From contig NZ_JNFC01000009.1 in NCBI RefSeq assembly GCF_000756385.1, positions 1 through 64,000 of the forward strand: a DNA stretch of 64,000 bases. Direction: 5' to 3'. Of this stretch, positions 43,361 to 63,803 are shown in pieces. The position numbers and the translations under genes were made by a program. The number at the start of each line of letters is the position of its first letter. Within the stretch, counting starts at the first letter, position 1. Under the pieces are notes generated by a model. That model ran no database searches. It saw only the letters and a program-made list of their open reading frames with translations, and was not told where the DNA came from. Origin of the DNA: Sphingopyxis sp. LC363. Its GTDB lineage: Bacteria; Pseudomonadota; Alphaproteobacteria; Sphingomonadales; Sphingomonadaceae.

Positions 43361-43645
43361 TTGGAATTTCATCGTCGTTCTGTTGCGCTCTCGCCTTCAG
43401 CTTGGCTTGCTCTAAACGAGCTCGCCAAGTCGGAAGGCATTACCAAGTCAGAGCTTGTCCGTCGCATCGTAAACAGCTTCCTGGCGGACCGGGATCGTCC
43501 CCAGTTCAATCCGCAACGGATGGCTATCATATGCGAGTATGTGCAGCTCGTTGCCGATGAATGGGTGAGGACGAACGCGCCTGATCGGCGTGACGAATTT
43601 CTCGCAATGGTGGATGCACGAATGGACCGTCACCATGACAGATAG
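43361..43645 (+). CDS. Ribbon-helix-helix accessory protein (TrwA-like)
   Basis: 94 residues, TTG start preceded by GAGAGGGAGG. The RHH motif is FHRRSVALSPSAWLALNELA, KSEGITKSELVRRIVNSF. The C-terminal helical part would mediate oligomerisation. It sits directly before the coupling protein and relaxase genes, as TrwA does in R388, where it binds oriT, stimulates nicking and represses the operon. The four GGGTGCA palindromes upstream are its likely sites. The stop overlaps the coupling-protein start by 11 bp. Confidence 0.7.
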   Translation: MEFHRRSVALSPSAWLALNELAKSEGITKSELVRRIVNSFLADRDRPQFNPQRMAIICEYVQLVADEWVRTNAPDRRDEFLAMVDARMDRHHDR

Positions 43646-46025: not shown

Positions 46026-46030
46026 GCGCG

Positions 46031-49000
46031 ATGACGGTTTCGATCGGCAAAGTGCATTCCGCGGGAGGGGCCGCGGCCTACTTCGCGGCGGACAATTATT
46101 ATACGGCCGAACAGTCGGAAGCCGTGTCAGCCTGGGCGGGGGAGGGGTCGAAGGATCTCGGACTGTCTGGGACCGTCGATACCGCCACGTTCGAACGCAT
46201 CCTGAACGGCGAGCTGCCTGACGGAAAGCAGATCGGCGATCCAGCGACACGCGTCAGCGGTCGCGACTTCACATTTTCGATGCCGAAGTCAGCCTCGCTC
46301 CTTGCGCTGGTTTCGGGCGACAAGCGGATCCTCGCCGCGCATATGGAAACAGTCAAACAGACGATGGCCTGGGCAGAGAAGAACCTCGCCGAAGCTCGCG
46401 TTCATGTTGACGGCAAGGATGTCGCTGTCCGCACCGGCAACCTGGTCTACGCGCTATTTCCGCATGACACGAGCCGGGCCACCGACCCGCAGAGCCATAT
46501 CCATGCCGTCATCGCCAATCTGTCCCGGCTTCCCGAGCGATTCCGGAATCCCGATCGCGTCGACGAAAAGACCGGCGAAGACATCCGCGACGATGGCTGG
46601 CGCGCCTGGCACAACGGGACGATGTACAAGGCCAGCGCAACGCTCACCTCGATGGCAAACGCCATCCTCCGTGAGAAAGTCGAGGCGCTGGGCTATAAAA
46701 CCGAGATCACGGGTAAACATGGCGCTTTCGAGCTTCTTGGCCCCAATGGGGAGAAGATCAACAAGGAAGCTCTCGATGGCTTCTCCAAGCGCGGTAACGA
46801 CATAAAGGCAAAGGCCGAGGAGCTCGGCGTACATAGTCCGGAAGGCCGACGCGCCATCACGCAGCGCACGCGCGATCCGAAGATGGATGCCGGCGATCGC
46901 GCGGAACTTGCCGAGCGTTGGCGCGCCGAGGCGCGAGACTATCGCTACAATGGCGACCAGATTTACGCCATGGCTCTCGAGAGGTCGCGGGATCGCAGCT
47001 CTCCGATCGAACGCGGAATATTGGCCGTCAGCACCGCCATTCGGGATAGTCGCGACCGCCTTGTCGACTATCTGAAGCGGCCCGAGGATCCATTGGTCGA
47101 TTCCGGCCTCGCCAAACTGACACGCACGCCGGCGACCGCCCGAACCCAATATGCAACCGCGAGCGCCATTCGCATTTTGGGCGAACGCGAAGCCGTCTTC
47201 AGCACGGCCGACGTCATAAAGACGGCTGTGGATCTTGGCGAGAAGGGTGTGACGCCCGAACGCATCGAGCGCCGGATCGCCGAGCTCGTCGAAAAGGGCG
47301 AGATCGTCCCCGAAACTTCGCAACGGCTCGACAAAGCGATCGACATGATCACGACGCGGGAGGCGATCGAGCAAGAGCGCCGCATATTGAAGGCGATGGA
47401 CACAGGCGCCGGTGAAGCGCGCCCGCTCATGTCGGCCGACGTCGCTCGCGACCGTCTGCAGGAGCTCGCGGTCCCGCGCGAGCTCAACACCGAACAGCTC
47501 GCGGCCGCGATCCAGATCGTCTCATCTCCAGACCGCATCGTGCTCGTCCAGGGCCGTGCCGGCGCGGGCAAGTCGACCATGCTTCAGCCCGTCGCCAAGG
47601 CTGAGGCCATCGATGCCACAGCGCGATTGATAGGCGCCGAAGACGCCAAATCGATCCTGCTAACCGCCGATATGCGCGGCGATGCGCAGGCCCTCGCTTT
47701 CCAGAACAAGATGGTCGCGGATCTGAGAACAGACACCGGAATGGAAGCGCGCACCGTCGACAGCTTCATCTATTCGAACGAGAAGTTTCTGAATGGCGAG
47801 GCGTCGGCCGAAGCCTTCGCCGCGCGTAAGGCCGACCTCGCCGGCACCTATCTTATCCTCGACGAAGCATCGATGATCTCGAACGAGCGGATGGACAAGC
47901 TAACCGCGATCGCGAACCTGATGGAGGTCGGCCGCCTCGCCATCATCGGCGACCGCAAACAGCTCAACCCGATCGACGCGGGCAAGAGTTTCTCGGTCAT
48001 GCAGGCGCGCGCCATCCAGGACCAGCTTCCGGTCAGCGAGGTCAACATAAACATGCGCCAGAAAACCGAAGACATGCGCTTGGTTGCCGATCTCGCCGAT
48101 GCCGGCAACGTGCGCGGCGCGATCGCGATCCTGCGGGATCGCGTCATCGAGAGCAAAACCCGGATCGCCGACGCCGCCGGCGCCTGGCTCGCGCTGCCGG
48201 CAGACGAGCGGAACAAGACCACGCTCCTGCCTTCGAGCCGCGATGGACGTGCGGAGGCCAACCAGATCATTCAGGAGGGGCTGAAAGCCGAAGGCACGCT
48301 GAAAGGGGACGGGCGCGTATTCAATGTTCGAGAGACTCTGCAGCTCACCCGCGAGGAGTATCGCTACGCCCGCAACTGGAAGGCAGCGCAGTTCCTCGAA
48401 GTCGGGAGTCGCGATAATGGGCTAGGTCTACCGAAGGGCGATTATTATATCGAGCGCGTCTTCGAAAACGGCCGCGTCGAACTCCGCGACATGCGCGGGC
48501 GCAAGCACCGTGTCGAACCGTCCAAGATCGACCCTGGCGGCAAGCTTAATCGTCTGAAGCTCAGCAACGAAAAGCGCATCGAGGTTCACGAGGGCGAGCG
48601 CATCCGCTGGACTGACAGTGATAAGCGCGATGGACGCGGCATGATCAACGCGACGATCGCCAGCATCGAAAAGGTCGACCGGGACGGAATCGTTGTGAAA
48701 CTCGCCGACGGCGAGGTCCGCGAGCTGAAGAACGCCGACCCGATGCTCAAGCGCATGGATCTCGCCTATGCGATCAACACGCATATGGCACAGGGCATCA
48801 CGAACGAGGCCGTATTCTCGGTTATGGGAGCGGGCGAGACGAACCTATCCAACGCTCGCGCCTTTCTCGTCAATCATACGCGGCAGCAAATGGATGTCAG
48901 GCTGTTCACCGACGACAAGGTCAAACTGATACGTCAGCTCGAGAGCAACCGCGGCGACAAGACCTCCGCACTCGAGGCGATCGGCGAGCTGGCGGTGGAA

Positions 49001-49264
49001 CGCATCCTGTCTGGTAAAGACGGGGTACGCGACACATCGACCGGGGAGGAGGCGGACAAGCCGACTCTCGCTGACCTCGAGCGCAAACTCGATCTCGGCA
49101 ACAGCCTTGATGTCGCTGCCGCCGCCACAGCGGAAAAACCCGAAACCAAGGAGACGGATATGGGCGGTCCCAGCCCCGCCGAAGGAAAGGGTGCCGGAAG
49201 GCCCGTGGCTCCAGCGCCGCGCGAAGAGCCTCAACTCGATCGGTCGAAAGGGCTTGAGCTGTAA
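46031..49264 (+). CDS. MOBF-family conjugative relaxase-helicase (TrwC/TraI type)
   Basis: 1077 residues. The N-terminal relaxase domain has the nicking tyrosines in AYFAADNYYT (Tyr17, 23, 24), SGRDFTFSMPKSAS, and the metal-binding His motif DPQSHIHAVIAN near residue 155. The C-terminal half is a superfamily 1 helicase (RecD2/TraI-like): Walker A QGRAGAGKST near 507, Walker B YLILDEASMIS, and IGDRKQLNPIDAGK. It nicks oriT, stays bound to the 5' end and unwinds the strand. Start at 46031 (MTVSIGKV) matches TrwC N-termini; a TTG at 46022 overlaps traD. The tail is Pro/Glu-rich. Confidence 0.9.
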   Translation: MTVSIGKVHSAGGAAAYFAADNYYTAEQSEAVSAWAGEGSKDLGLSGTVDTATFERILNGELPDGKQIGDPATRVSGRDFTFSMPKSASLLALVSGDKRILAAHMETVKQTMAWAEKNLAEARVHVDGKDVAVRTGNLVYALFPHDTSRATDPQSHIHAVIANLSRLPERFRNPDRVDEKTGEDIRDDGWRAWHNGTMYKASATLTSMANAILREKVEALGYKTEITGKHGAFELLGPNGEKINKEALDGFSKRGNDIKAKAEELGVHSPEGRRAITQRTRDPKMDAGDRAELAERWRAEARDYRYNGDQIYAMALERSRDRSSPIERGILAVSTAIRDSRDRLVDYLKRPEDPLVDSGLAKLTRTPATARTQYATASAIRILGEREAVFSTADVIKTAVDLGEKGVTPERIERRIAELVEKGEIVPETSQRLDKAIDMITTREAIEQERRILKAMDTGAGEARPLMSADVARDRLQELAVPRELNTEQLAAAIQIVSSPDRIVLVQGRAGAGKSTMLQPVAKAEAIDATARLIGAEDAKSILLTADMRGDAQALAFQNKMVADLRTDTGMEARTVDSFIYSNEKFLNGEASAEAFAARKADLAGTYLILDEASMISNERMDKLTAIANLMEVGRLAIIGDRKQLNPIDAGKSFSVMQARAIQDQLPVSEVNINMRQKTEDMRLVADLADAGNVRGAIAILRDRVIESKTRIADAAGAWLALPADERNKTTLLPSSRDGRAEANQIIQEGLKAEGTLKGDGRVFNVRETLQLTREEYRYARNWKAAQFLEVGSRDNGLGLPKGDYYIERVFENGRVELRDMRGRKHRVEPSKIDPGGKLNRLKLSNEKRIEVHEGERIRWTDSDKRDGRGMINATIASIEKVDRDGIVVKLADGEVRELKNADPMLKRMDLAYAINTHMAQGITNEAVFSVMGAGETNLSNARAFLVNHTRQQMDVRLFTDDKVKLIRQLESNRGDKTSALEAIGELAVERILSGKDGVRDTSTGEEADKPTLADLERKLDLGNSLDVAAAATAEKPETKETDMGGPSPAEGKGAGRPVAPAPREEPQLDRSKGLEL

Positions 49265-50281: not shown

Positions 50282-51283
50282 ATGGACACCCTTCGCACCT
50301 TCAGCGATGAGCAATCCCGGCTTCTCGTCAACCTCCGGCAACGATATGAAGCCTGGGTCGTAACCGAACGCGCCCGGGCCGCGCTGCCTTATGATTTGCG
50401 CCGCAAGACAGTGGGCGAATATGAATATCTCTATCAGATCCATGATCGCAGCGGAAACGGCAAGTCGCTCGGTCGCATGGACGCTGCGCGGGAAGCCGAG
50501 TTCCAAAAATATCGCCAGCAAAAGGCGGAGCTGAAAGAACGTGGCGCACTACTGAGCGCCAAACTTGCCGAAAGCGCCGCTCTGTACCGGGCTCTGCGAC
50601 TTCCCCTGCTTTCCAGCGATGCCGGTCCCATTCTTCGAGAATGCGATCGTCGCGATCTTCTTGGCTCGCACCTCCTCGTCGTCGGCACCAACGCGATCGC
50701 GGCCTATATGATAGAGGCCAATGGCTTCATTCTCTTGCCCGACGAAACCGAAGACTTCGATCTCGCCTGGGTCGCCGCCGAGCAAGACAATTCCGAACAA
50801 ACCGTCTGGCAGATGCTGAAGACCGTCGACCCGACCTTCACAATCAACAGCGAGCGTGATTTCCAAGCACGGAATGCCCGGGCGTATGAGGTCGAGCTGC
50901 TCGTAGCGCCGTCTCGTGCCGAAACACTGAGCGACCGCGATCAACCGCGGCCGATTCCTTTGGAAGAGCAGGAGTGGCTGCTGCTTGGTCGACCGGTCGA
51001 TCAAGTCGTCGGCTGCCGCGATGGGTCCCCTGCCCGGATCGTAGCGCCGGACCCTCGATGGTTTGCGCTCCACAAACTCTGGATGTCAGAGCAGGCCAAG
51101 CGCAACCCTCTTAAGCGTCCGAAGGACCGTAAGCAGGGGCTGGCGCTGCTCGACGCCGTCGTCGAGGCCATGCCACATTATCCGCTCGATGAGGCATTCG
51201 AAGCGGCGATCCCGCCCGATTTGCAAGAAATTTTCGAGAATTGGCAGAAAAATACCACGGCTGGACGCAAGTCCAATTGGTGA
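50282..51283 (+). CDS. GSU2403-type nucleotidyltransferase-fold protein
   Basis: 333 residues. The N-terminal third is helical. The central nucleotidyltransferase-like core has LLVVGTNAIAAYMIEANGF and ETEDFDLAWVA (D-x-D metal pair), then a C-terminal FALHKLWMSEQAKRNPLKRP and KDRKQGLALLDAV. This matches the GSU2403 family, structurally related to AbiEii/MenT-type nucleotidyltransferases. Some such proteins act in toxin-antitoxin or defence, but no function is known for this group. No partner antitoxin is visible; the operator-like inverted repeat over its start suggests tight control. Confidence 0.7.
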   Translation: MDTLRTFSDEQSRLLVNLRQRYEAWVVTERARAALPYDLRRKTVGEYEYLYQIHDRSGNGKSLGRMDAAREAEFQKYRQQKAELKERGALLSAKLAESAALYRALRLPLLSSDAGPILRECDRRDLLGSHLLVVGTNAIAAYMIEANGFILLPDETEDFDLAWVAAEQDNSEQTVWQMLKTVDPTFTINSERDFQARNARAYEVELLVAPSRAETLSDRDQPRPIPLEEQEWLLLGRPVDQVVGCRDGSPARIVAPDPRWFALHKLWMSEQAKRNPLKRPKDRKQGLALLDAVVEAMPHYPLDEAFEAAIPPDLQEIFENWQKNTTAGRKSNW

Positions 51284-53144: not shown

Positions 53145-53998
53145 GGGCTGAGACTCATTCAGAGCCAGAAGGCCAAGGTAGTGACCAGCGCGACGGCTGA
53201 CAGGAAGTTGGCGGCGAGCTTGTCGTAGCGTGTGGCGATCCGACGGAAGTCTTTGATCCGGCAGAAGGCATTTTCGATGAGGTGCCGGCTACGGTAGCGG
53301 TGCTGATCGTATCGGATGGCTCGCTTGCGGTTGCGGCGACCCGGAATGACGGGGCTGGTGCCATTCTCGCGCAAGGACGTCCGCAGCCGGTTTGCGTCGT
53401 AGCCCTTGTCGCCGAGCAGGTAGCGCATCGGTCCGGCGCGTTCGAGCAGTGCCGGTGCAGCCTTCACATCGCTGACATTGCCCGCCGTCAGCATAAGGGC
53501 ATAGGGGCGGCCGAGAACGTCGGTCAGGGCATGGATCTTGGTTGTCCAGCCGCCGCGAGAACGACCGATCGCCTGCGTCTGGCGCCCCCTTTTCCACCAA
53601 AGGCCGAGCGCTGGGCTTTGATGTAGGTGCTATCGATCGCCGTGCTCTTCGTCACCGCACCCGCCCCTGCCAAGGCATCGAGCAACTTCGTCCAGAACCC
53701 CCGCCGCGACCAGCGGTTGAAGCGGTTGTAGACCGTCGTCGATGGTCCATAGTCTGCCGGACAGTCGCACCACCGGCAGCCGGATTTCAGTACATGAAGG
53801 ATGCCCGAAATCACCCGCCGGTCATCGACCCGTCGCGCACCAGGCTGGTTCCGGGGCAAGTACGGCTCGATCGCCAGCCAAGCTTCGTCCGACAACCAGA
53901 ATAAAGAACGCGACATCGTGAAGGGCCTCCCGCTGCGGTGAAGGCCCTTTGAATCAATACATACAAGCAATTTCAAGAGGCTGATTGGGTTTTAACCC
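53145..53998 (-). mobile_element. IS5-family insertion sequence (IS427-like)
   Basis: 854 bp. Terminal repeats are imperfect and begin GGG (left GGGCTGAGACTCATTCAG, right, inverted, GGGTTAAAACCCAATCAG), flanked on both sides by TA (53143-53144 and 53999-54000), as expected for insertion into CTAG-like targets. Contains one transposase in two frames. Confidence 0.85.
53159..53916 (-). CDS. IS5-family transposase (two frames, -1 frameshift)
   Basis: Frame 1 (from 53916, MSRSLFWLSDEAWLAIEPYL) covers the N-terminal DUF4096-like domain and the first catalytic Asp (STAIDSTYIKAQRSAFGGKG). Near 53590 a run GGA-AAA-GGG on the minus strand allows a -1 slip into frame 2, RQTQAIGRSRGGWTTKIHAL, then LLGDKGYDA (second Asp), RSRHLIENAFCRIKDFRR (Glu) to TLAFWL. 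The stop lies inside the left terminal repeat. A two-frame layout is normal for this group, so this is not called a pseudogene. Confidence 0.85.
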
Positions 53999-54010: not shown

Positions 54011-54514
54011 ATGATGGAACTTGCCGATCACGACCGAGCCTTTTGGGACGATGGCGAATGGGTCAGCTGGGACGAGATTAATCAGCAGATCGAATACAAG
54101 GAATGGCGGGCGAAATATCCAAACGCCGACATCTCCCTTGTCCCGATCTTCGAAAGCCTTCTCTCAACGGCATGTAGCTACAATGCCCACACCGGGAAGC
54201 ATTTGCACGTCTACGGCGATATCGGCGAATTATACGGCGCGATCACCCACGGTATCCGGTTGAACCGAAACTACGCGCAAGGGTCCGACGGACGACTTGG
54301 CAACGACCTGATCGAAATCAAAACGATCACGCCGTTCAAGCGGACGGACACCGTTGAAATCAACATGGCGCGGAACTTCAGCAAGGTTCTGATCGTCCGC
54401 ATCAACGACGAGTTCGATATCAGCGGGAAGCTGATCGACCGGAAATCACTCCCCAAGGCGAAGGGGAAAATCCGCGTAAGCTGGAGTGAGGTTTCCGGTC
54501 AAGCGATCATCTAG
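54011..54514 (+). CDS. PD-(D/E)XK-like hypothetical protein beside IS5
   Basis: 167 residues. FESLLSTACSYNAHTGKHLH and VYGDIGELYGAITHGIRLNR precede GNDLIEIKTITPFKRTDTVE. The D-x(3)-E-x-K spacing (NDLIEIKT) resembles a restriction-type PD-(D/E)XK nuclease core, as in DUF6998-like proteins. It begins only 13 bp from the IS5 right end, with no Shine-Dalgarno, so its original promoter may be lost or replaced by the insertion. It converges with the membrane-anchored gene of the PLD operon, overlapping by 4 bp. Confidence 0.55.
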   Translation: MMELADHDRAFWDDGEWVSWDEINQQIEYKEWRAKYPNADISLVPIFESLLSTACSYNAHTGKHLHVYGDIGELYGAITHGIRLNRNYAQGSDGRLGNDLIEIKTITPFKRTDTVEINMARNFSKVLIVRINDEFDISGKLIDRKSLPKAKGKIRVSWSEVSGQAII

Positions 54515-55086
54515 TCGAACACCATCTTCCGGGTGACAGACGTCGTTCCCAACGTCGCATAGGAACCGTCGTCCAATAGCTTGGCTAAGCCCACGCAGTT
54601 GAACCATTTGGCGCTGATGCCATTGTCCGCCAGATATTTGGTCACATACGCCTTCGACCAACCCTTGCTGGTCGATGCCAACCGGTTGCCGCGACCTACG
54701 ATTGTCTCTTCCGGATTGCCGATGCCTATCGAAGAGCAACGGTAGGCGTCCGGTATGATCAACTTGTCGCCCTCGAAACCGATCCCGCTGATGTTGCCAT
54801 CGTTCGGCAGGGTCTTCACTTCCCCCGCAGAGATGTCGATGGTCTGAGACATTTGCGCCGCATGAACGCATTCGTAGCCGTCTTTGATGGACCAGCAGCG
54901 GGTCAGCGCGTCAGAGAAGCCTCCGACGCCCGATTGCGCAACAAAGCTTCCATCCGCCATCTTCTCCCAAGTCACCTGCTTGCCAGCCGATGGCGGCATA
55001 TCGACCGGGCGCGACAGGAAGTTCCAAGCGCCGTAACCGGTGGCGATGGTCGCGACGGCGGCTACGCCGATCCAAATCTTGCTCAT
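54511..55086 (-). CDS. Membrane-anchored protein, third gene of the PLD operon
   Basis: 191 residues. A single N-terminal hydrophobic segment (IWIGVAAVATIATGYGAWNF) acts as signal or anchor. The exported domain has four Cys residues (RCWSIKDGYECVH, YRCSSIG, WFNCVG) that could form two disulfides. No known family. The start overlaps the PLD gene stop by 4 bp (55083-55086), so the three genes form one translational unit. It may be an envelope sensor or effector of the system, or a passenger. Confidence 0.6.
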   Translation of the reverse strand: MSKIWIGVAAVATIATGYGAWNFLSRPVDMPPSAGKQVTWEKMADGSFVAQSGVGGFSDALTRCWSIKDGYECVHAAQMSQTIDISAGEVKTLPNDGNISGIGFEGDKLIIPDAYRCSSIGIGNPEETIVGRGNRLASTSKGWSKAYVTKYLADNGISAKWFNCVGLAKLLDDGSYATLGTTSVTRKMVFD

Positions 55087-57458
55087 TCAACTCCGTCCCT
55101 TTCCGAACCAACCATGGTGTCTTCTGCCGCTGTCGCCGCGATATTGTCCGCGCTTGCCAGCAACCCCAGTCTCATTCCGATCGAGCGATCCAAGCCAGCG
55201 CGAATGTCCGCGGCGGTGGTGCCAGTTAGTTCCGCAGCGGTAAGGCCGAGCAGTTTTATCATCAGCACCCGAAGTTTTGAGACATATGGCAGGAAGTCGC
55301 GATTTGCCCGATTGTTCGGCATCAGTGCTTCAATGGCGTCGAGCGCCCAAAGCGAGGTTACCCAGCATTCCATAAAGTCGACCGGCATTTCGCTATACTC
55401 TCGTGCCATCATGAGCCGCGAGATAGCTGGCGATTTACCGCCAAAGAATGCGACGAGCGCCCGTGCGACCAGTCGGGGCCATGACTGGGGTGCGCTCGAG
55501 CAATCGAGCCCCTTGGGGAGATCGTTGCAGCGCGCCTTGAAGAGCAGGAGCAGGATCCAATAGCGAAGACGGAGGACCTCGGCTGATCCGATGGCATCCC
55601 CGTCATCTTCGATTTCCTCTGCATAGGCCCAGATATAATATTCGAACTCTTTGGCATCTATTTTCCGACGCTCGACGGGTTCCGGGTTGACCGAAGCTAG
55701 CGCTGCGGACTCGACGTCGGCATCCGGCACGTCATCTATATCATCCGTTTCTTCGCCCATATCGAGCCAGCCGTCATCGTCGCGATCGGCGCTGGGCTCA
55801 CTGCGCCCGGTCAACAGATTGAGGAAATCGCGAATGCTGTCGGTGTAGGTGCCCGCGAGACTATTGGCTCCGTTCCCACTCCCCCGCGCACTGCCTGGGC
55901 GCGCTTCGGTGAATTCCTCATAGCTGAGATTTGTGGGGTCCGCCGCCGCCCCGACTTCTTTCGGTTCTCGCGGGCGGGCGCTTGCGATCGCGGCACCCTC
56001 TTTGCTCTGCGAGAAATCGGCCCGGACCAGCGTTTCGAATGCTTCGTGCATCCATAGCTCAAAATCGGTTCCATCGGTGAATTGAGAAAGCGCACGAGCA
56101 ACGCGGCCGCTGGCTGCTTCCCGGCGACTTTCTCTCAGCGCCTGACGGTGCGAAACATGGGCCGTCGTTGACACAAATTCGCCGCGGACAATGCGCGCAA
56201 AGAACAGCTTCTGCTGAAGTTCCGAGGTGATCGGCACTGCTAGTCGAGAGCCCGCGCTTGCAAAGGACGCCGCTGGAATGTCGTCTAGCAGTGCGCCGGC
56301 ACGGTCTAGGAGCTGGATGATACCGTCTCCCGCATCGCCGATAGGTGGCTGCCAGAACAGGGAACCTTGATCCGTTTCAAAGGAGCCAGGACGCCGCGCC
56401 TCCAAGATCGCCAGCGGGATTTCAGGCAGGTCTTCGCGGTCCGCCAATTGGGAAAGCTCAAGCCGATCAGCGTCGATCCAGCGATCGAGGCCCAATGCTT
56501 TGACTGCGGTCCCCGCGGGCAGCCGCCGATAGACGCAGGCCTCCGCGTTGCTGCCGGCGCTACTAAGCGCCGCAGTCGTGCAATTCGCGCTCCCAAAAAG
56601 GATATGGTCATGATGCTTCGTCAGCGCGACGAAGACTTTCGCATGAGTGAAGCGCGAGTTCGGGGAATTGAGATCTACGAGCCGAACCTTTTTTGCGAAG
56701 GCAGCTTCGGCGGGGAATTCGTGGTGTTCGCTGTCGATAGGAAGGATGATTTCTTTGGGCGAGAGCTCCGCCGCCAATTCAGAAAGGGCGCTGAGGTTGC
56801 TATCCCAATAAGGGCTGACAACGAGCAGCTTCCGCACCTTCTCGTTGCCGATCCATTCCACAAACTGGTTCGAAATTCCGCGATCGGTTGATGAAGGAAG
56901 AAAGCCAATCGCAGAGCCGTCGTCGAGTTCCTTGAGCGGCGCTCCGACCGGCCCTTCCAGCCACGGCGCCCGTTCGCGTGCCCAGCGCAGCGCATCTCGT
57001 GCGGGCGACGCTTCCTCTGAAACTAAGGAGTTCAGATACTGCCAGATGGCGCGTAGGATTTCACGTTCGGGTCCATCTTCATTGCCAGACTCGATCTCGA
57101 TGGCGATTTCCACGTTTCCGCCGAGGCCGGCGCCGGTGGCGTTGGCCGAGCTGACAAATGCCCTTCCCGTTTCGCGACCGAGTTGCAGAATGATCTTCGG
57201 GTGGAAGATGCCGTCACTCGCTGGTGGGCTATGGAGTGCGTAATCGCGGCCGAGCGCGACGGGCAATCTCGAGCCGTCGGTAAGCGCCATAGCCGCCATG
57301 CGATCGTCGGCCACCAAGAGAAGATTGTTGGCGCCGCTGGCCCTAAGCTGCGGCAGCAGGATTTCTTCAACCGCCGCGAATTCGACCGCGAATGTGGTTG
57401 TGATGGCACTATGAAAAGGCTTGCGGGGTCGACGGCCCAACCGTTCAGGTAGTTTCAT
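55083..57458 (-). CDS. Tandem phospholipase-D-like protein, second gene of a putative defence operon
   Basis: 791 residues. Two PLD-type half sites: H86-x-K88 in DGIFHPKII with N106 (SSANATG) and E117 (NVEIAIE); then H272-x-K274 in FTHAKVFVAL with N292 (FGSANCT) and E306 (SNAEACV). The HxK-N-E form without the classical Asp is that of BfiI/NucT-type nucleases. The C-terminal 350 residues include a linker rich in Ser/Asp and helical segments (YYIWAYAEEIEDD). Both neighbours overlap it by 4 bp. The nuclease role is inferred from motifs; the substrate (phage DNA?) is unknown. Confidence 0.7.
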   Translation of the reverse strand: MKLPERLGRRPRKPFHSAITTTFAVEFAAVEEILLPQLRASGANNLLLVADDRMAAMALTDGSRLPVALGRDYALHSPPASDGIFHPKIILQLGRETGRAFVSSANATGAGLGGNVEIAIEIESGNEDGPEREILRAIWQYLNSLVSEEASPARDALRWARERAPWLEGPVGAPLKELDDGSAIGFLPSSTDRGISNQFVEWIGNEKVRKLLVVSPYWDSNLSALSELAAELSPKEIILPIDSEHHEFPAEAAFAKKVRLVDLNSPNSRFTHAKVFVALTKHHDHILFGSANCTTAALSSAGSNAEACVYRRLPAGTAVKALGLDRWIDADRLELSQLADREDLPEIPLAILEARRPGSFETDQGSLFWQPPIGDAGDGIIQLLDRAGALLDDIPAASFASAGSRLAVPITSELQQKLFFARIVRGEFVSTTAHVSHRQALRESRREAASGRVARALSQFTDGTDFELWMHEAFETLVRADFSQSKEGAAIASARPREPKEVGAAADPTNLSYEEFTEARPGSARGSGNGANSLAGTYTDSIRDFLNLLTGRSEPSADRDDDGWLDMGEETDDIDDVPDADVESAALASVNPEPVERRKIDAKEFEYYIWAYAEEIEDDGDAIGSAEVLRLRYWILLLLFKARCNDLPKGLDCSSAPQSWPRLVARALVAFFGGKSPAISRLMMAREYSEMPVDFMECWVTSLWALDAIEALMPNNRANRDFLPYVSKLRVLMIKLLGLTAAELTGTTAADIRAGLDRSIGMRLGLLASADNIAATAAEDTMVGSERDGVE

Positions 57459-58969
57459 GCGGCTGCCTCCAGCAAGGGAAGCGCGCGCGAAGTCGGACCA
57501 TCTTCATTCAAGAGGTGAATGTCTTCAAGAAACTGGATCGCAGGCATAAGGCGAGGTGTCGTCGCGACCGGCTGATAGTTTTTGAGATAGATCAGTCGGC
57601 CGTCCCGTACCTCGAACAGGAAGGTATAATCTCGCTGCCGGCGCAGCTTCTGCATCGCAACCCAGCTATGACGTCGAACTACACGTTCGATCATATAGTC
57701 GGCGATCTTCTCGATGACGGTCTGATCTTCCTCCGAGGCCAGCCAGTTTAGCTCGGTGCGCAGAGAATGCGCCATGCCGCGGAGAGGAAAGCCTCGATTG
57801 ATCCGGTCAGCGAGATCGGGACGGTCCAAGGTCCGTTGATGGAGCGCCGCCATGAGCTGAACGGCCGCCATCGCCTTCTCATCAGGGGCGCCGCGCCAGT
57901 TTGTAATCTGGTTCCAGGTCTCTCTAAAGTCGTAGGTCTCGCGGACATTCCTAGACCGGAATTCACGCCATGATCCGGCGAATCCCAGCTCGGATTGCGA
58001 CGTGAGCTCGTCGACGACTTGCGCGCGGATTTCGAGAATCGGCAATCCGCCGTCGGCGGAATTGAGCAGCGAGAGGGCCCAAGCCAGCAGGGACGCGGCC
58101 GCCACCTGCATCAGGTCCTGACAGTTGTAGACTTCCCAGTTCAGTCGTTGAGCCTCAAGCTCGGCGGGCAGAGGATCCGCGGGCACATCGAAGAGGTGCC
58201 ATCGGACATCTTCCGGTCCGGGAGCCGCTTCGATGGCGCGCGCTGTATGGAGGACGAGCCGCAGCGATGCGCTTCGACTGTGCGCGTTCTCCGAGGCAGT
58301 GTCACCTTCGGCGAAAAGGAGCATTTCGTAAAATTCGCGCTCGGCGCCGTCTTCGTCGATTTCGGACGGAGCAATTGGGCTAAGGCGCTCGAGTTCGCGA
58401 GCACTCACGCTGGCGTCGGCGATCTTCTTCCTGAGCAGCTTTGCGACGTCTGGGCCGATCGCATCGGCGAATAGGGTCGCGGCTCGCTTGCCGAGTTCGC
58501 GTGTGGCGACTTGGATGCCATGCTTATTGTAGGTGAAGAGCCCCATCTCTTCCATCTGGGAAAAATATGCGCCTCCGAAGACGCCAAGCGCTTGGCGCAA
58601 ATATAGCTTCTGCGATCGATCGGTTGAAGCGGCGGCGGCGAAGTCGATGACCTTCTTGTCTACGGCGAGCCGGCCATTTGCCCATTCCGTTCCGCCGACA
58701 CCCGTCTCTTCGGCATATGCGGCGACGAGGGCGTAGAGCGCCTCAGCTTTGCGGAGCCAGGTTCGCCATGCCTCGAAATCGTCGGACGCTCCGCTACGCG
58801 CATAGGTTTCGCTGACCCAGCAATAATAGCAGTAATAGCGCATTCTGAGGGTAACATTGCTGATACCCGGCAAAAGGGCTTGGTAGAGCAGCACGCCGCT
58901 ATTTTGGATGCCTAGGGGGTCTAGGCCGCGCTTGTCAGCCTTCTCCGTCCACTGCGGTAATAGGTCCAA
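57455..58969 (-). CDS. Large helical protein, first gene of the PLD operon
   Basis: 504 residues with no recognised domain. The N-terminus LPQWTEKADKRGLDPLGIQN is followed by LLYQALLPGISNVTLRMRYY and a Tyr/Cys-rich YYCYYCWVSETYARSG. Then come long helical stretches, EEMGLFTYNKHGIQVATREL and, near the C-terminus, FEVRDGRLIYLKNY. It looks like a conserved but unnamed family. The stop overlaps the PLD gene by 4 bp. Partnership with a PLD nuclease suggests a recognition or regulatory subunit (inference). Confidence 0.65.
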   Translation of the reverse strand: MDLLPQWTEKADKRGLDPLGIQNSGVLLYQALLPGISNVTLRMRYYCYYCWVSETYARSGASDDFEAWRTWLRKAEALYALVAAYAEETGVGGTEWANGRLAVDKKVIDFAAAASTDRSQKLYLRQALGVFGGAYFSQMEEMGLFTYNKHGIQVATRELGKRAATLFADAIGPDVAKLLRKKIADASVSARELERLSPIAPSEIDEDGAEREFYEMLLFAEGDTASENAHSRSASLRLVLHTARAIEAAPGPEDVRWHLFDVPADPLPAELEAQRLNWEVYNCQDLMQVAAASLLAWALSLLNSADGGLPILEIRAQVVDELTSQSELGFAGSWREFRSRNVRETYDFRETWNQITNWRGAPDEKAMAAVQLMAALHQRTLDRPDLADRINRGFPLRGMAHSLRTELNWLASEEDQTVIEKIADYMIERVVRRHSWVAMQKLRRQRDYTFLFEVRDGRLIYLKNYQPVATTPRLMPAIQFLEDIHLLNEDGPTSRALPLLEAAA

Positions 58970-58990
58970 AATTTCCCCCTATTGAGGGCT

Positions 58991-59196: not shown

Positions 59197-59868
59197 TCAG
59201 TTGGTGATTGCAAGCTCAATCAGGTTTCGGCTGATATCCCTTGAATGCGCGACGAGGCTGCGCGTGTGTTCGCGCAGCATGAGCTGCCCGATGATCCCTT
59301 CGACATAGGCCGGGTTGGTCTTGTCGATGACTTCCAGCGCAGTCTTGCATTTGTCAGGCGGGCATTGCTTGAGGGCCGATAGCACGTAGTCGGACCCAAA
59401 ATGCTCAGCGACCGCGGCGAGATCGAACATGTCTCGCGGTTGGAGACTCCAACCGCGATAGAACACCTTTTTTGCAATAATTTCTGCCGGAGTTTCAAGC
59501 GCGACAGCGTGACCTCGTACATCGGTCGCTGCGGTCGGGTCGAGCAGGATATTGTCGCAGCAAATGAAGTCGATTTCGCCCAACTCCTCATATGCGAGCT
59601 TTAAGACATCCGTGCCGGCCTGATAGCTATCGGGAGCCCGTTCGAGTTTGATACCCTGTGTTTCCGGGTTCAAAAACGGTAAATATTGTGGATCGTCCAG
59701 AAACAGATCGATGTCGTGACTCTCCCGATGGTCGATCTGCAGCATGAGCGCAGTCCCGCCGCCAAAACTCCAACTGGGTGAAAAGCCGTTCGCTTCGTTG
59801 AAGTGCTTCAGGATATCGATTGCGAGATCGAAAAGGGCCGGCCATTCGCTTGGCCGCTTCTCGGGCAC
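59197..59868 (-). CDS. AbiEii/AbiGii-family nucleotidyltransferase toxin
   Basis: 223 residues. Nucleotidyltransferase motifs: SFGGGTALMLQIDHRESHDI followed by DLFLDDP (metal Asp pair), FICCDN, and LETPAEIIAKKVFYRGW with the conserved Lys. Shorter than typical AbiEii (about 300 residues), closer to MenT-type single-domain toxins. AbiEii enzymes transfer nucleotides to tRNA acceptor ends and arrest growth. It follows a small gene by 4 bp; together they form a putative toxin-antitoxin pair of the abortive-infection type, without the usual AbiEi winged-helix antitoxin. Confidence 0.8.
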   Translation of the reverse strand: MPEKRPSEWPALFDLAIDILKHFNEANGFSPSWSFGGGTALMLQIDHRESHDIDLFLDDPQYLPFLNPETQGIKLERAPDSYQAGTDVLKLAYEELGEIDFICCDNILLDPTAATDVRGHAVALETPAEIIAKKVFYRGWSLQPRDMFDLAAVAEHFGSDYVLSALKQCPPDKCKTALEVIDKTNPAYVEGIIGQLMLREHTRSLVAHSRDISRNLIELAITN

Positions 59869-59872
59869 GGCG

Positions 59873-60139
59873 TCAGGCCGCCAGCGGCAATGCGTAACCC
59901 GAAAGCTGGGAGACTTGCTCAGCGACTTGGCTCGCTAGTTGCTCATCCACATTCATGGCCCACATGAACTGCTTCTGGACCTGAAGCGGAACTTCGGAGA
60001 AGAATGCGAAAACTGGCGCATTAAAGCTAATCGCGCTATCGGAATCGACGATCATAGCGGCAAGCTGATGTGCAGAAACAGCCGCCCCGTAAGGGGCGTT
60101 CACCGTAGTAAGCACTTGAGTTACAGCGTTTGCCATCAT
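59873..60139 (-). CDS. Small partner of the AbiEii-like toxin (putative antitoxin)
   Basis: 88 residues, Ala/Gln/Val-rich, no helix-turn-helix visible: VTQVLTTVNAPYGAAVSAHQ, VQKQFMWAMNVDEQLASQVA. It lies 4 bp upstream of the toxin gene on the same strand, fitting a co-translated antitoxin. The lack of a recognisable DNA-binding domain makes it unlike AbiEi. Start at 60139 or 60136. Confidence 0.55.
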   Translation of the reverse strand: MMANAVTQVLTTVNAPYGAAVSAHQLAAMIVDSDSAISFNAPVFAFFSEVPLQVQKQFMWAMNVDEQLASQVAEQVSQLSGYALPLAA

Positions 60140-60578: not shown

Positions 60579-63500
60579 TCAGCGCTTGCGACCCTTCCCG
60601 CCACGCGGCTTTGGATCATGTTCGATGTGAAGATGATTGTTCGCCGGATTGTCGCGGAACGTCTCAAAATTGACGTCATAGTCCGGTCCGAGGCGTTCGC
60701 GAACATCGCGAGCCCACTGGCGGCCCTGCGCAATGCTGATGTCATTCCCGCGCAGATCAAGCCCCTTCCCTTCGGGATGCAAACTACCGCGAGAATGCTG
60801 ACTGTCGCGGGCAGACGTTACGATGCGCTGCGGCAACCCGAGCGCGTGAGCCGAGGCAGCAGCGGCGGTCAACGCCGGCGCCATGCTCGAGTCCATTGAA
60901 TTGAGATTTGCCCCGCCCTTAACGCCGAGGCCGGCGGCGGCGGCTACTCCTCCCAGATTTACCCGGTGCCCGCCGAGAGGCGCGTCCGCCGCGTTATCGA
61001 GCCCGAGCGCCCTCATCGCCGACGCCACGCCTGGCATGGTGCGGATGACCCACGAATCGTTCCGAGCCTCCGCCGTTGCACCCAGGCTGTCTGCCTGCCG
61101 CCGATCGCCGAGCAAGGTTGCCCTCATGCCGTGACCATATTCATCGAGGCGCGCGACGCTCCCATCGAGTCGACCGCTCACATTATCCTCGAGCGCTACG
61201 TCACGTGCCGTACCGGAAACATCGACCGCAGGGCCGCGCGCTGCGATCTCGGCCATACCGGCAGCGCCGATCGCGCGTATGTCGTCGGCGGTAGAGAACG
61301 AGGGTCCCACAATCGTGCCGGCAGGAGCGTCCGGAACCACGCCGAGGTCGCGGTGCATCTGATCAACGCGATCGTCCATGAACTGCTTCAGCAAAGCGTC
61401 TTGCGTCATCGCCTGCGTCGTCGTCATGTTGACCAGGCCCGGGTGATAGCTCTGATCGAGATGACGATTTTGCGGGTCCATCATTGCAGTTTGAGCATAG
61501 CGGACGAATTCCTGGCTCAAATTCTTGTTCAAGGCATAGCCGTCGCGCTCGAACTGCGAGAATTCGCTCGACCAACGCTGATACCGTTCTTCCGCGCGCG
61601 AAGCTTCCTCGCTGAGGCTTTGTGAGTGCCTCAGATCCTGCGATACTTCCTGCCCCAGACCACGGACCTGACTGTCGGTCGACGACGTGGTTGCACGATA
61701 GAAGCTCTCGCGCGCTTGCCGAGCAGCCTCCGAATTCGATTCCCTTTCAAGCCACTGATAGGCGTCAGTGTTTGCGTTCTGAGTTGAAACGCCCTGTTCT
61801 GTGTTCCTTCTGTCGCTCGAATTGCCGTCGATGCCGATCTTCCCATCGACTTGACCTGAGAGCGGCCCGCGTTTTCCACTTACCGCACCCGACGCACCAA
61901 CTCCCGCCCTTCCGGTCAACACCGTATCACGAGCCAATTTATCCGCTTCGCTTTTCGTCATGCCAAATTGGGTCTGAAGCGTATTCGACCACTGTGACGA
62001 AAGATCTTGGACCTGAGCGATCGACGACTGCAGCGAGCGACCTTCTTCGGTTGTTGAGCTCGCCGACGTCTGCGCCGTGTCGAACAGCCGCGCCGATTCC
62101 GTGCGCGTCGTCGCCCAGCTATCGTTCGCCGCAACGCGCTTCTGCTCGACGACACCCGACCCTTGGCTAAGCCCCTTCTGCAGCTGCGACCCATAATCCT
62201 TGCTCGCCGAGATCGCGAAGCCAAGGTTCGAAATGCCCTGACTAGTGTCGTAAGCGAAACTTCCATCTTCGTTATAACGCATGAACGCGCCATCCCCGGC
62301 GCGCTGCTGGATGGTCGCGGCGCCAGTGCTGAAGCTCGGGGCTGTCGTGTACTGGTCCCGCTGCAGCGTGTTGACTTGCCGGTTCATCAGCGAAGCGTTG
62401 CCGTACGAATAATTGCCCGTGGTCGCTTCGGCCGCGGCCTGCTCAGCCGCATTCTGGCTTGGCGAGAGAAAGCTCGCGGAATGCGACGCGATCGCCATTG
62501 CGCCTTTCGCCATGCCGGCAGCGATGAACGGCACGGACATGATCATATAGCCGGCGAGCGCGCCGACGTCCTGGTTGACAGCCGAGATGCCGGAGAAGTT
62601 GGCGGCCGTCATCCCACCATTCGCGCCCCACGATGCAAGAGAATCCTGCCAACGCGACATGAAGATCATGTTCAAAATGACGAACAGCGGCCCCCAGGCA
62701 GCCAGATAGAAGAAGCCCGTGATATAGCCTTTGGCAACGGTCATGCCGTTGGTGGGCAGCAGCATCAGCAGGAACAGGATTGGGAAGAGCGAGTAGAAAA
62801 CGACCGTCAGAACGATGTTCAGCAAGGGAACCCATTTCATCGCGCCCGACGCGATCGTCGAATAGGTATTGCGGGTCTGAATGTCCGCGCGAGTCTGCGC
62901 GAACGCATCGATCGAACCCTGCGCGGATCCGCTAGCAAAGCTGTCGCGCGCCTCCGTCAGCGCATTGATGAACATCGCCTGCCGAACGAGCTGACCGCTG
63001 CTCGAGCCCATTCCTGCGGCGTTCATATTACTGATGTCGTTGTTCAGGCGGGTCGACGCTTGCGCAACCGGAATGCCGGGGAAGAACTGAGCTGCAATTT
63101 TGGGAGCTGCGATGGCGTAGTAGTTGCTCCAGCCATTGCGAATGAAATTGTAGGCCGTCTCGCAGGTGACGATGCCCGATGTGCCATCGGGATAGATATA
63201 CTGCTGCGAAAGCGCGACCGACCCCGGCCCCATCGCAGTGAGCAGATCCGAGGACTTCAGGGTGTCGTCATAGGTTTTGCGGCCGAGCAGGATGTCATAA
63301 AAGACGCACTGCTTGAAATGCTCGTTCAGGTTGGTCGCATAGACCGGATCGTCGATCCTCAGGCCCTGCGTAGCATCGAGCAACTTCGCGCCATAGATCA
63401 TGCCTCCGGTCGAATAATTGAGCACTTGGGGCATGGCGAACACGGTCTCGGCGGCTCGCGTGAGATAATCGCCGATCTGGCTGGTGAAGCCGGCGACCAG

Positions 63501-63803
63501 GCCGAGGCCGACCGGAACATTGTCGACGACCGCCGCCGTCACGCCTGGGTTGGTGCGATCGGTAACTTTTACCGAGATCGTGGGCACCATGACGACCAAA
63601 TACATCAGGGTCGCCTGCATGAACCATTTGAGGAGCGCCCGCGGATCCATATTCCACGCCGTGACGAGGAGCGCCCAGGTGAACGCCATGACCATGACAA
63701 CGCGAATGAGGCCACGGTAACCACCGGAGCCTGACCACGACGCCACCGCGTTGAAGACGTTGACGAGATACTCCCCGCCCCCGACCGTGAACACCTCGAT
63801 CAT
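60579..63803 (-). CDS. traG: Conjugal transfer protein TraG (F-type) with a C-terminal M15-peptidase-like domain
   Basis: 1074 residues. The N-terminal about 450 residues are the TraG_N membrane domain with several helices (GLIRVVMVMAFTWALLVTAW, FMQATLMYLVVMVPTISVKV, VVFYSLFPILFLLMLLP), required for pilus assembly and mating-pair stabilisation. The middle is a long Ser/Gln-rich coiled-coil periplasmic region. The last about 110 residues contain SRGSLHPEGKGLDLRGND and NNHLHIEH, matching the SxHxxGxxxD ... HxH zinc pattern of M15-type D-Ala-D-Ala peptidases; F-plasmid TraG is not known for this. It could open peptidoglycan for the channel (inference). Ends at the left in a strong hairpin. Confidence 0.8.
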   Translation of the reverse strand: MIEVFTVGGGEYLVNVFNAVASWSGSGGYRGLIRVVMVMAFTWALLVTAWNMDPRALLKWFMQATLMYLVVMVPTISVKVTDRTNPGVTAAVVDNVPVGLGLVAGFTSQIGDYLTRAAETVFAMPQVLNYSTGGMIYGAKLLDATQGLRIDDPVYATNLNEHFKQCVFYDILLGRKTYDDTLKSSDLLTAMGPGSVALSQQYIYPDGTSGIVTCETAYNFIRNGWSNYYAIAAPKIAAQFFPGIPVAQASTRLNNDISNMNAAGMGSSSGQLVRQAMFINALTEARDSFASGSAQGSIDAFAQTRADIQTRNTYSTIASGAMKWVPLLNIVLTVVFYSLFPILFLLMLLPTNGMTVAKGYITGFFYLAAWGPLFVILNMIFMSRWQDSLASWGANGGMTAANFSGISAVNQDVGALAGYMIMSVPFIAAGMAKGAMAIASHSASFLSPSQNAAEQAAAEATTGNYSYGNASLMNRQVNTLQRDQYTTAPSFSTGAATIQQRAGDGAFMRYNEDGSFAYDTSQGISNLGFAISASKDYGSQLQKGLSQGSGVVEQKRVAANDSWATTRTESARLFDTAQTSASSTTEEGRSLQSSIAQVQDLSSQWSNTLQTQFGMTKSEADKLARDTVLTGRAGVGASGAVSGKRGPLSGQVDGKIGIDGNSSDRRNTEQGVSTQNANTDAYQWLERESNSEAARQARESFYRATTSSTDSQVRGLGQEVSQDLRHSQSLSEEASRAEERYQRWSSEFSQFERDGYALNKNLSQEFVRYAQTAMMDPQNRHLDQSYHPGLVNMTTTQAMTQDALLKQFMDDRVDQMHRDLGVVPDAPAGTIVGPSFSTADDIRAIGAAGMAEIAARGPAVDVSGTARDVALEDNVSGRLDGSVARLDEYGHGMRATLLGDRRQADSLGATAEARNDSWVIRTMPGVASAMRALGLDNAADAPLGGHRVNLGGVAAAAGLGVKGGANLNSMDSSMAPALTAAAASAHALGLPQRIVTSARDSQHSRGSLHPEGKGLDLRGNDISIAQGRQWARDVRERLGPDYDVNFETFRDNPANNHLHIEHDPKPRGGKGRKR

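What the first reader, a model, noticed from the sequence alone, without database searches (positions are those of the whole stretch)
54511..58969. Three-gene helical / tandem-PLD / membrane operon: candidate undescribed defence system
Seen: three minus-strand genes with 4-bp overlaps at both junctions encode a 504-residue helical protein without a recognised domain, a 791-residue protein with two HxK-N-E phospholipase-D-like half sites, and a 191-residue protein with an N-terminal membrane segment and several cysteines. A palindrome sits at the promoter. Established: PLD-type nucleases occur in restriction enzymes (BfiI) and in some antiphage systems (for example DISARM DrmC). Inference: with an AbiEii pair, a GSU2403-type nucleotidyltransferase, a PD-(D/E)XK-like protein and an IS nearby, this is a defence-like island, and this operon does not match a system I know.
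Basis: partly seen in the sequence, partly recalled or inferred. Interest (0 to 1): 0.75.

Follow-up and report, generated by a model that had tools for sequence, protein, structure and literature searches.

The report
Two-gene PLD nuclease defence module
A pair of overlapping genes on a Sphingopyxis-type conjugative plasmid, a probable DNA-cutting enzyme of the phospholipase D family and its constant partner, recurs as a unit in many bacteria, often near antiviral genes; it looks like a distant, motor-free cousin of a catalogued defence system, but what it does has not been tested here.

Summary
The genes, coordinates and two 4-bp overlaps are real. The 791-residue protein carries two complete PLD half-sites (H86/K88/N106/E117 and H272/K274/N292/E306), invariant in 52 of 52 aligned relatives. 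The "operon" is really a two-gene core: gene 1 and gene 2 are adjacent in 78 of 82 loci found with gene 1 (three exceptions end at the contig edge, one is a remnant). In 398 genomes searched with each profile separately, strong hits to both fell side by side in the same six genomes (one of them the window's own). Gene 3 accompanies the pair only in the close Sphingopyxis lineage, and the promoter palindrome did not hold up. 104 immediate neighbours match 272 PADLOC defence models; 104 control genes match 2. The pair is not wholly undescribed: gene 2 is a clear, gene 1 a marginal, distant relative of ZacB and ZacA of PADLOC's ZacABC. It lacks the ZacC helicase (no match in the own genome) and has no NTPase or methylase of its own. 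Most likely it is a compact nuclease defence module in which gene 1 recognises or licenses DNA and gene 2 cuts it. In 10 of 75 loci conjugation genes are near, so a plasmid role stays open. Function was not tested; no structure could be predicted.

The parts
   Evidence: a gene 2 relative follows in 78 of 82 loci
58817..58927 (-). gene 1 N-terminal conserved motif (residues 15-51, consensus GLDPLGxQ...LPGISNVTLRxRYYxYYCW), the part that hhalign aligns with ZacA
57470..57670 (-). gene 1 C-terminal conserved segment (residues about 434-500), possibly a winged helix-turn-helix
   Evidence: one relative (L031) hits HTH_45 at E 8.6e-6, residues 478-510; weak winged-helix hits in few of 52 members, none in the window protein
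55083..57458 (-). gene 2: 791-aa tandem-PLD protein, distant relative of ZacB
57108..57203 (-). PLD half-site 1 (H86, K88, N106, E117)
   Evidence: 52 of 52 rows; same H-x-K, N, E spacing as chain 2c1l
56541..56645 (-). PLD half-site 2 (H272, K274, N292, E306)
   Evidence: 52 of 52 rows
57455..57458 (-). 4-bp overlap gene 1/gene 2; exactly 4 bp in 54 of the 78 loci that hold both genes, by the most upstream start codon
54511..55086 (-). gene 3: 191-aa protein with N-terminal hydrophobic segment; overlaps gene 2 but is not part of the conserved module

Best explanation
Genes 1 and 2 form a self-contained two-gene defence module that moves between bacteria. Shown: gene 2 has two intact PLD half-sites in one chain; gene 1 is its constant partner with an overlapping reading frame; the pair recurs without a fixed helicase, methylase or third gene; its neighbours match defence models far more often than control genes do. 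Inferred: the two half-sites fold together into one metal- and ATP-independent phosphodiesterase site (established chemistry of the PLD/BfiI class, recalled) that cuts foreign DNA; gene 1 binds gene 2 and, perhaps through a winged helix at its C-terminus, recognises or licenses the DNA to be cut; the overlap couples translation so that the nuclease is not made without its partner. It is related to ZacAB of ZacABC but works without ZacC, perhaps borrowing helicases of neighbouring systems where these are present. What marks DNA as foreign is unknown.
For: Adjacency 78 of 82 and 6 of 6 genomes with strong hits by two separate profile searches of 398. Gene 1 and gene 2 distances correlate at r = 0.98 over 69 loci. 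Catalytic residues invariant 52 of 52. The only PDB hit of the gene 2 profile is the restriction endonuclease chain 2c1l, with the same H-x-K, N at +20, E at +31, but E only 0.98. dN/dS 0.12-0.15. Neighbours: 272 PADLOC models hit by 104 immediate neighbours against 2 by 104 control genes. Plasmid copies lie behind a complete Zorya, between hsdS and hsdR, near type I-like RM genes and near DrmD- or HsdR-like helicases. In 6 of 21 comparisons at 85% DNA identity or more the shared DNA begins and ends within about 110 bp of the pair. Relation to ZacB and ZacA.
Against: No function was tested and no structure could be predicted. The winged-helix reading rests on a few weak hits. The other 15 of 21 close comparisons share DNA further out on at least one side, or are cut by a contig end. 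The window's own neighbours are an AbiEii-type gene and plasmid transfer genes, not a large defence island, and 10 of 75 pair loci have conjugation-gene relatives in the fetched flanks (1 of 20 controls). PADLOC counts are of models, many of one family, not of neighbour proteins; most of the 104 neighbours are not shown to match any. Weak gene 2-like PLD hits without gene 1 are common (11 of 17 genomes), as expected for a large superfamily. The 82-locus survey was seeded with gene 1, so it cannot show gene 2 alone; address that in part.
Confidence: 0.58

Rival explanations
1. Accessory nuclease module: the pair cannot act alone and serves as a cutting arm for whatever motor-based system is near it (type I RM, Zorya, DISARM-like SNF2, Mokosh-like or MrfA-like helicases), as ZacAB may serve ZacC.
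For: 21 of 75 pair loci hold a relative of 13 helicase or RM seeds in the fetched flanks, 0 of 20 control regions; 18 of 68 loci with enough upstream DNA have a same-strand operon-like upstream chain with a gene of 500 aa or more; Zorya, hsdS/hsdR and DrmD neighbours.
Against: 54 of 75 loci show none of the seed types (other helicases may be missed); partners are of unrelated kinds; several closely related pairs share almost nothing beyond the pair. Most seeds were drawn from pair neighbourhoods, so 21 of 75 is partly circular; control regions are 10 kb against up to 21 kb.
Confidence: 0.25
2. Plasmid function rather than immunity against phages, for example exclusion of other plasmids or DNA processing in transfer: in the window the cargo lies between traG and the traD/traI genes, where the F plasmid keeps its entry-exclusion genes (recalled).
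For: Position between TraG (60579-63803) and TraD/MobF-TraI (43590-49264). TraG and TraH relatives also lie upstream of the pair in three Erythrobacteraceae loci (L151, L154, L157) whose gene 1 is only 28-29% identical to the window's; in all, 10 of 75 pair loci show Tra or VirB relatives, 1 of 20 controls. The Roseovarius copy lies near T4SS genes.
Against: 65 of 75 loci show no relative of the eight Tra/VirB seeds; several copies are on chromosome-size contigs (G287:C1, 5.25 Mb; L128, Cupriavidus chromosome 1). The tra-linked spot may simply be a site where cargo, defence included, collects.
Confidence: 0.1
3. Toxin-antitoxin-like or plasmid-addiction pair: gene 2 is a toxic nuclease and gene 1 its inhibitor and autoregulator.
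For: Strict pairing, overlapping frames and plasmid location next to an AbiEii-type gene; HipA-type neighbours in some loci.
Against: Gene 1 is far larger than usual antitoxins (recalled); copies on chromosome-size contigs. The reversed order in a sister group does not decide. It overlaps with the best explanation if the pair acts by abortive infection.
Confidence: 0.1
4. Three-gene unit, with gene 3 as a membrane component of the defence mechanism.
For: 4-bp overlap and purifying selection on gene 3, dN/dS 0.13.
Against: Gene 3 is found with the pair in 2 of 82 survey loci (L085, L086) and in pSfKp5.2 and pDB-1, all Sphingopyxis; distant gene 3-like proteins lie in stretches without the pair in the four checked (L168-L170, L174).
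Confidence: 0.07

Closest known systems
ZacABC (PADLOC-DB 2.0.0: ZacA PDLC03828, ZacB PDLC03829, ZacC PDLC03830; L081's ZacA is Pfam DUF6361)
   Same: Gene order A then B, N-terminal motif of A, two PLD half-sites and surrounding sequence of B.
   Different: Scores far below a true member (17 and 63 bits against 397 and 535 for L081); proteins longer (504/791 aa against 420/611 aa as given); ZacC helicase missing.
BfiI (PDB 2c1l; the name is recalled, the call says restriction endonuclease) and other PLD-family restriction enzymes
   Same: H-x-K, N at +20, E at +31 in half-site 1; ATP-independent chemistry expected (recalled).
   Different: Two half-sites in one chain instead of one per subunit (recalled); separate partner protein; no methylase in the unit; PDB match only E 0.98.
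DISARM DrmC
   Same: PLD nuclease in a defence context; the first half-site matches DrmC models at E 3.5e-7.
   Different: 25 bits against a cut-off of 133 for NCBIfam DrmC; two half-sites; no DrmA/DrmB-like gene noted beside the pair in the window (not searched as families).
Druantia III DruE, Mokosh and other helicase-PLD systems
   Same: PLD nuclease; Mokosh-like helicases lie beside some pairs. DruE PLD domains: passages of PMC13192584. PLD in Mokosh: recalled.
   Different: No motor in the pair itself; in DruE the PLD domains are fused to the helicase.

Membership tests
ZacABC | ZacA (DUF6361) over its length | tested here: not met
   E 8e-4, residues 30-96 only; no Pfam hit; DUF6361 in 4 of 52 relatives, best E 0.0055; 48 columns, probability 67%, against a profile of only 4 sequences.
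ZacABC | ZacB PLD protein | tested here: met
   E 5.7e-18; probability 98.5%, E 1.5e-15 over 290 columns. Distant: 63 bits against 535 for L081.
ZacABC | ZacC helicase in the genome or beside the pair | tested here: not met
   0 of 1 (own genome) at E 0.001; of 35 seed hits at 75 pair loci none has a ZacC seed as its best.
DISARM | DrmC above curated cut-off | tested here: not met
   25.2 bits, cut-off 133.
DISARM | DrmA and DrmB in the locus | not tested
   No own-genome search for these families was made.
PLD-superfamily nuclease | HxK...N...E half-sites, two per active site | tested here: met
   (PLDc_2, 27.1 bits, cut-off 27).
PLD-superfamily nuclease | DNA cleavage without metal or ATP | not testable with these tools
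   Needs purified protein.
Restriction-modification | cognate DNA methyltransferase in the unit | tested here: not met
   None in the two-gene unit; HsdM-like genes in the flanks of some pair loci only (7 of 35 seed hits).
Anti-phage defence system | enrichment near known defence genes | tested here: met
   272 against 2 models; 21 of 75 against 0 of 20 loci, with partly circular seeds.
Anti-phage defence system | measured protection | not testable with these tools

The most novel reading that the evidence does not exclude
A widely mobile two-protein immune system with no NTPase, no methylase and no nucleotide signal: a tandem-PLD nuclease gated only by its DUF6361-like partner, which by itself tells foreign from own DNA. 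ZacABC would then be a branch of this family that gained a helicase.
Probability: 0.33. Interest if true: 0.7.

Novelty: new variant of a known kind. Interest (0 to 1): 0.52.

Why it matters
Pfam calls DUF6361 a family of unknown function, and three library searches found no paper on ZacABC or DUF6361. The PLD nucleases in the papers whose passages I saw are mostly fused to or encoded with helicases; a two-gene unit that can travel without one would let the basic question, how a PLD nuclease is held in check and aimed, be tested with two purified proteins.

Tried and rejected
Three-gene unit: rejected because gene 3 was found with the pair only in the window, pSfKp5.2, pDB-1 and two further Sphingopyxis contigs, L085 and L086. 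Promoter palindrome: not found. Sigma-70-type promoter scan: no site near 58970; 1 promoter-like site against 1.7 expected and 6 terminator-like sites against 5.1 expected in the region. Phage origin: gene 1 has no match at E 0.001 in 50,697 phage records and 2 confirmed loci in viral contigs. Filing as DISARM: rejected. Papers on ZacABC or DUF6361: one search lists only unrelated uses of such letters among its 20 shown of 504; searches find 0; some searches gave listings of related papers. Three of these were seen as passages only (PMC12458937, PMC12839542, PMC13192584). PDB by sequence: one chance-level hit each for the two window proteins alone, E 1.3 and 0.33; only designed helical proteins, fusions and a viral protein, E 0.28 or worse, for the gene 1 profile (that the second is viral is recalled); none for the L224 partner. 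PHROGs: nothing for genes 1 and 2.

Rows dropped before counts: near-duplicate or truncated loci L086, L115, L165, L166 were left out of neighbour lists, L152 too, and L086, L115, L101, L141, L152, L165, L166, which used 75 loci. 13 of 82 loci were left out of the 69-row comparisons. Alignments A3 and A4 used 48 of those 69 plus the window and L038, L042, L084. A5 holds 104 of 136 immediate neighbours of 150 aa or more (six loci dropped as near-duplicates, proteins over 1800 aa dropped, the rest shuffled and filled up to 104). Controls were 104 genes from 20 regions that I picked by hand in 13 genomes, each of which has the pair or ZacABC relatives. A5 and A6 hold unrelated proteins and served only as containers for the scans.
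Full report
Observation. The three minus-strand ORFs lie exactly where the finding puts them, with 4-bp overlaps at 57455-57458 and 55083-55086. Gene 2 barely passes Pfam's PLDc_2 cut-off (27.1 against 27 bits). Its half-sites H86/K88/N106/E117 and H272/K274/N292/E306 are invariant in all 52 rows of alignment A4. Against the nearest divergent relative, plasmid pDB-1, dN/dS is 0.117, 0.153 and 0.128 for genes 1, 2 and 3; traG and the AbiEii-type gene give 0.05. So these are real genes under selection. The palindrome is not supported.

Setting. The window is part of an F-type, MobF conjugative plasmid region of the Sphingopyxis kind: the cargo lies between TraG and the TraD/TraI genes. pSfKp5.2 of Sphingopyxis fribergensis is 100% identical over 94% of a 14-kb query; what it lacks is one stretch of about 0.85 kb, window 53146-53997, that overlaps matches to an annotated IS5 transposase. 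pDB-1 carries the same three genes at 85-90% protein identity.

The conserved unit is two genes. A scan of genome contigs (84,980 species genomes by the tool's account) with the gene 1 alignment confirmed 155 relatives, of which the best 80 were kept; viral contigs gave 2 more. In 78 of these 82 loci a gene 2 relative follows on the same strand. The four others are three contig ends (L101, L141, L143) and one gene 1 remnant (L162). A few of the 78 are damaged: gene 1 in two ORFs in L108, gene 2 cut short in L089 and in two ORFs in L140. The overlap is exactly 4 bp in 54 of the 78 by the most upstream start codon. To lessen the bias of seeding with gene 1, both profiles were run separately on 398 genomes of the same phylum. 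Gene 1 matched 8 genomes at E 0.001 and gene 2 matched 17; the strong hits (gene 1 E < 1e-80, gene 2 E < 1e-60) fell in the same six genomes, side by side. One of the six is the window's own genome and one (G470) contributed a row to the profiles. The weaker gene 2 hits (11 genomes) are short PLD-like stretches or ZacB-type proteins. The weaker gene 1 hits were G546 (ZacA-type) and G633, whose gene 1-like ORF has an upstream partner with a GSxNxT...NxE stretch seen by eye but no profile hit (L224); G704 also holds a second, partial copy near an integrase (L225). In the gene 2-seeded search of 397 family genomes, one gene 2 without half-site 1 (L043) and one at a contig edge (L044) have no gene 1. 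A sister group has the reversed order, gene 2 then gene 1 (L045-L048). Pairwise distances of the two proteins correlate at 0.98 over 69 loci.

What moves. The tree of 69 pairs puts close relatives in different orders (22 changes of order where 11 is the least possible; shuffles average 41; quick method), which suggests transfer but does not prove it. In one search, 31 comparisons within 10 groups that I picked were made; 21 are at 85% DNA identity or more. In 6 of these the shared DNA begins and ends within about 110 bp of the pair (L119-L123, L121-L123, L123-L142, L105-L107, L107-L111, L113-L116; three of them involve one MAG contig, L123, and L121-L123 has a further short match upstream). 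The other 15 share more on at least one side, up to the whole locus, or are limited by a contig end. So the pair can travel without helicase, methylase or gene 3, though it does not always do so.

Neighbourhoods. 104 immediate neighbours match 272 PADLOC models at 1e-10; 104 control genes match 2. These are models, not proteins; among the commonest are Mokosh-type (5 members), UvrD/GajB-type helicases (3) and type I HsdR (2), so the number of matching neighbours is much smaller than 272. The Pfam scan of the same neighbours shows AAA_11/AAA_12 helicases, UvrD, serine recombinases, HsdR and HipA; no Pfam scan of the controls was made. With 13 seeds, 21 of 75 pair loci carry a helicase or RM relative and 0 of 20 controls do; most seeds come from pair loci. 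Results that point elsewhere: 10 of 75 pair loci show Tra or VirB relatives (1 of 20 controls), among them TraG/TraH upstream of the pair in three Erythrobacteraceae loci with a very different pair. On plasmids, of seven distinct distant loci that I viewed, five lie near RM, Zorya or DrmD/HsdR-type genes (L027, L173, L029, L030, L031) and two show none next to them (L171, with a UvrD helicase about 3.5 kb away, and L172). Other plasmid hits were apparent duplicates of these or were not viewed.

Relation to known systems. PADLOC-DB names ZacB (E 5.7e-18) and ZacA (E 8e-4, 67 residues) as the closest models. ZacB's own search of 349 genomes finds four strong loci (E 1e-116 or better), while the window's gene scores 5.8e-11. 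One of these, L081, has ZacA (DUF6361, E 5e-97), ZacB and ZacC, a helicase of 1,060 aa, in a row. Profile-profile comparison gives 98.5% for gene 2 against ZacB over both PLD halves and 67% for gene 1 against ZacA, limited to the N-terminal motif. ZacC has no match in the own genome. The pair is therefore a distant, motor-free relative and not a member. I found no paper that names ZacABC or DUF6361 in the library, so I cannot say whether ZacABC has been tested. Of PMC12458937, PMC12839542 and PMC13192584 I saw only the passages; they describe PLD/HKD nucleases that are mostly fused to, or encoded with, helicases.

Mechanism. Shown: intact double half-sites, constant partner, overlapping frames, context. 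Established for the class, recalled here: PLD enzymes use a phosphohistidine and need no metal; BfiI needs no ATP. The only PDB sequence hit of the gene 2 profile is chain 2c1l, with identical H-N-E spacing in half-site 1, but at E 0.98. Inferred: one active site made of both halves, aimed or restrained by gene 1. A winged helix at the C-terminus of gene 1 is a lead only: HTH_45 in one member and weak winged-helix hits in few others, none in the window protein.

The conjugation-gene result raised the plasmid rival from 0.07 to 0.10 and lowered the best explanation from 0.60 to 0.58, the novel case from 0.35 to 0.33 and the three-gene rival from 0.08 to 0.07.

Verdict. A real, conserved, mobile two-gene PLD module with defence-like surroundings; a new variant of the ZacAB kind. 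Interest is moderate: the helicase-free form and the DUF6361-like partner of unknown function are worth testing, but the kind is catalogued and function is unproven.

Noticed in passing
window about 53146-53997: IS5-type element present here and absent from the otherwise identical plasmid pSfKp5.2; the two flanking matches overlap by 4 bp there, as a target duplication would give. It lies next to, not inside, the module.
   Followed up: partly
L151, L154, L157 and the window: TraG/TraH relatives lie upstream of the pair in Erythrobacteraceae too, although their gene 1 is only 28-29% identical: the spot after traG may be a recurrent cargo site of conjugative elements.
   Followed up: partly
   Followed up: partly
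window 50282-51283 (+): NTP_transf_8 (GSU2403-type) nucleotidyltransferase, E 1e-32, with a nucleotidyltransferase of the same length at the like place in both sister plasmids.
   Followed up: no
window 59197-60139 (-): AbiEii-type nucleotidyltransferase (E 1e-12) with an 88-aa upstream gene that has no Pfam or PADLOC match.
   Followed up: no
L045-L048: A sister group has the genes in the order PLD first, gene 1 second.
   Followed up: partly
L135, L137, L139, L140: Genes of a serine recombinase cluster lie directly upstream of the pair; the cluster recurs at 9 loci and may mobilise it.
   Followed up: no
L225, L162, L224: Apparently decaying copies: gene 1 remnants and a partner ORF that lacks its first half, one beside a phage-type integrase.
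   Followed up: partly
L136: A MAG contig labelled Opitutia (Verrucomicrobiota) carries a pair 89% identical in DNA to Rhodobacterales copies: transfer or a binning error.
   Followed up: no
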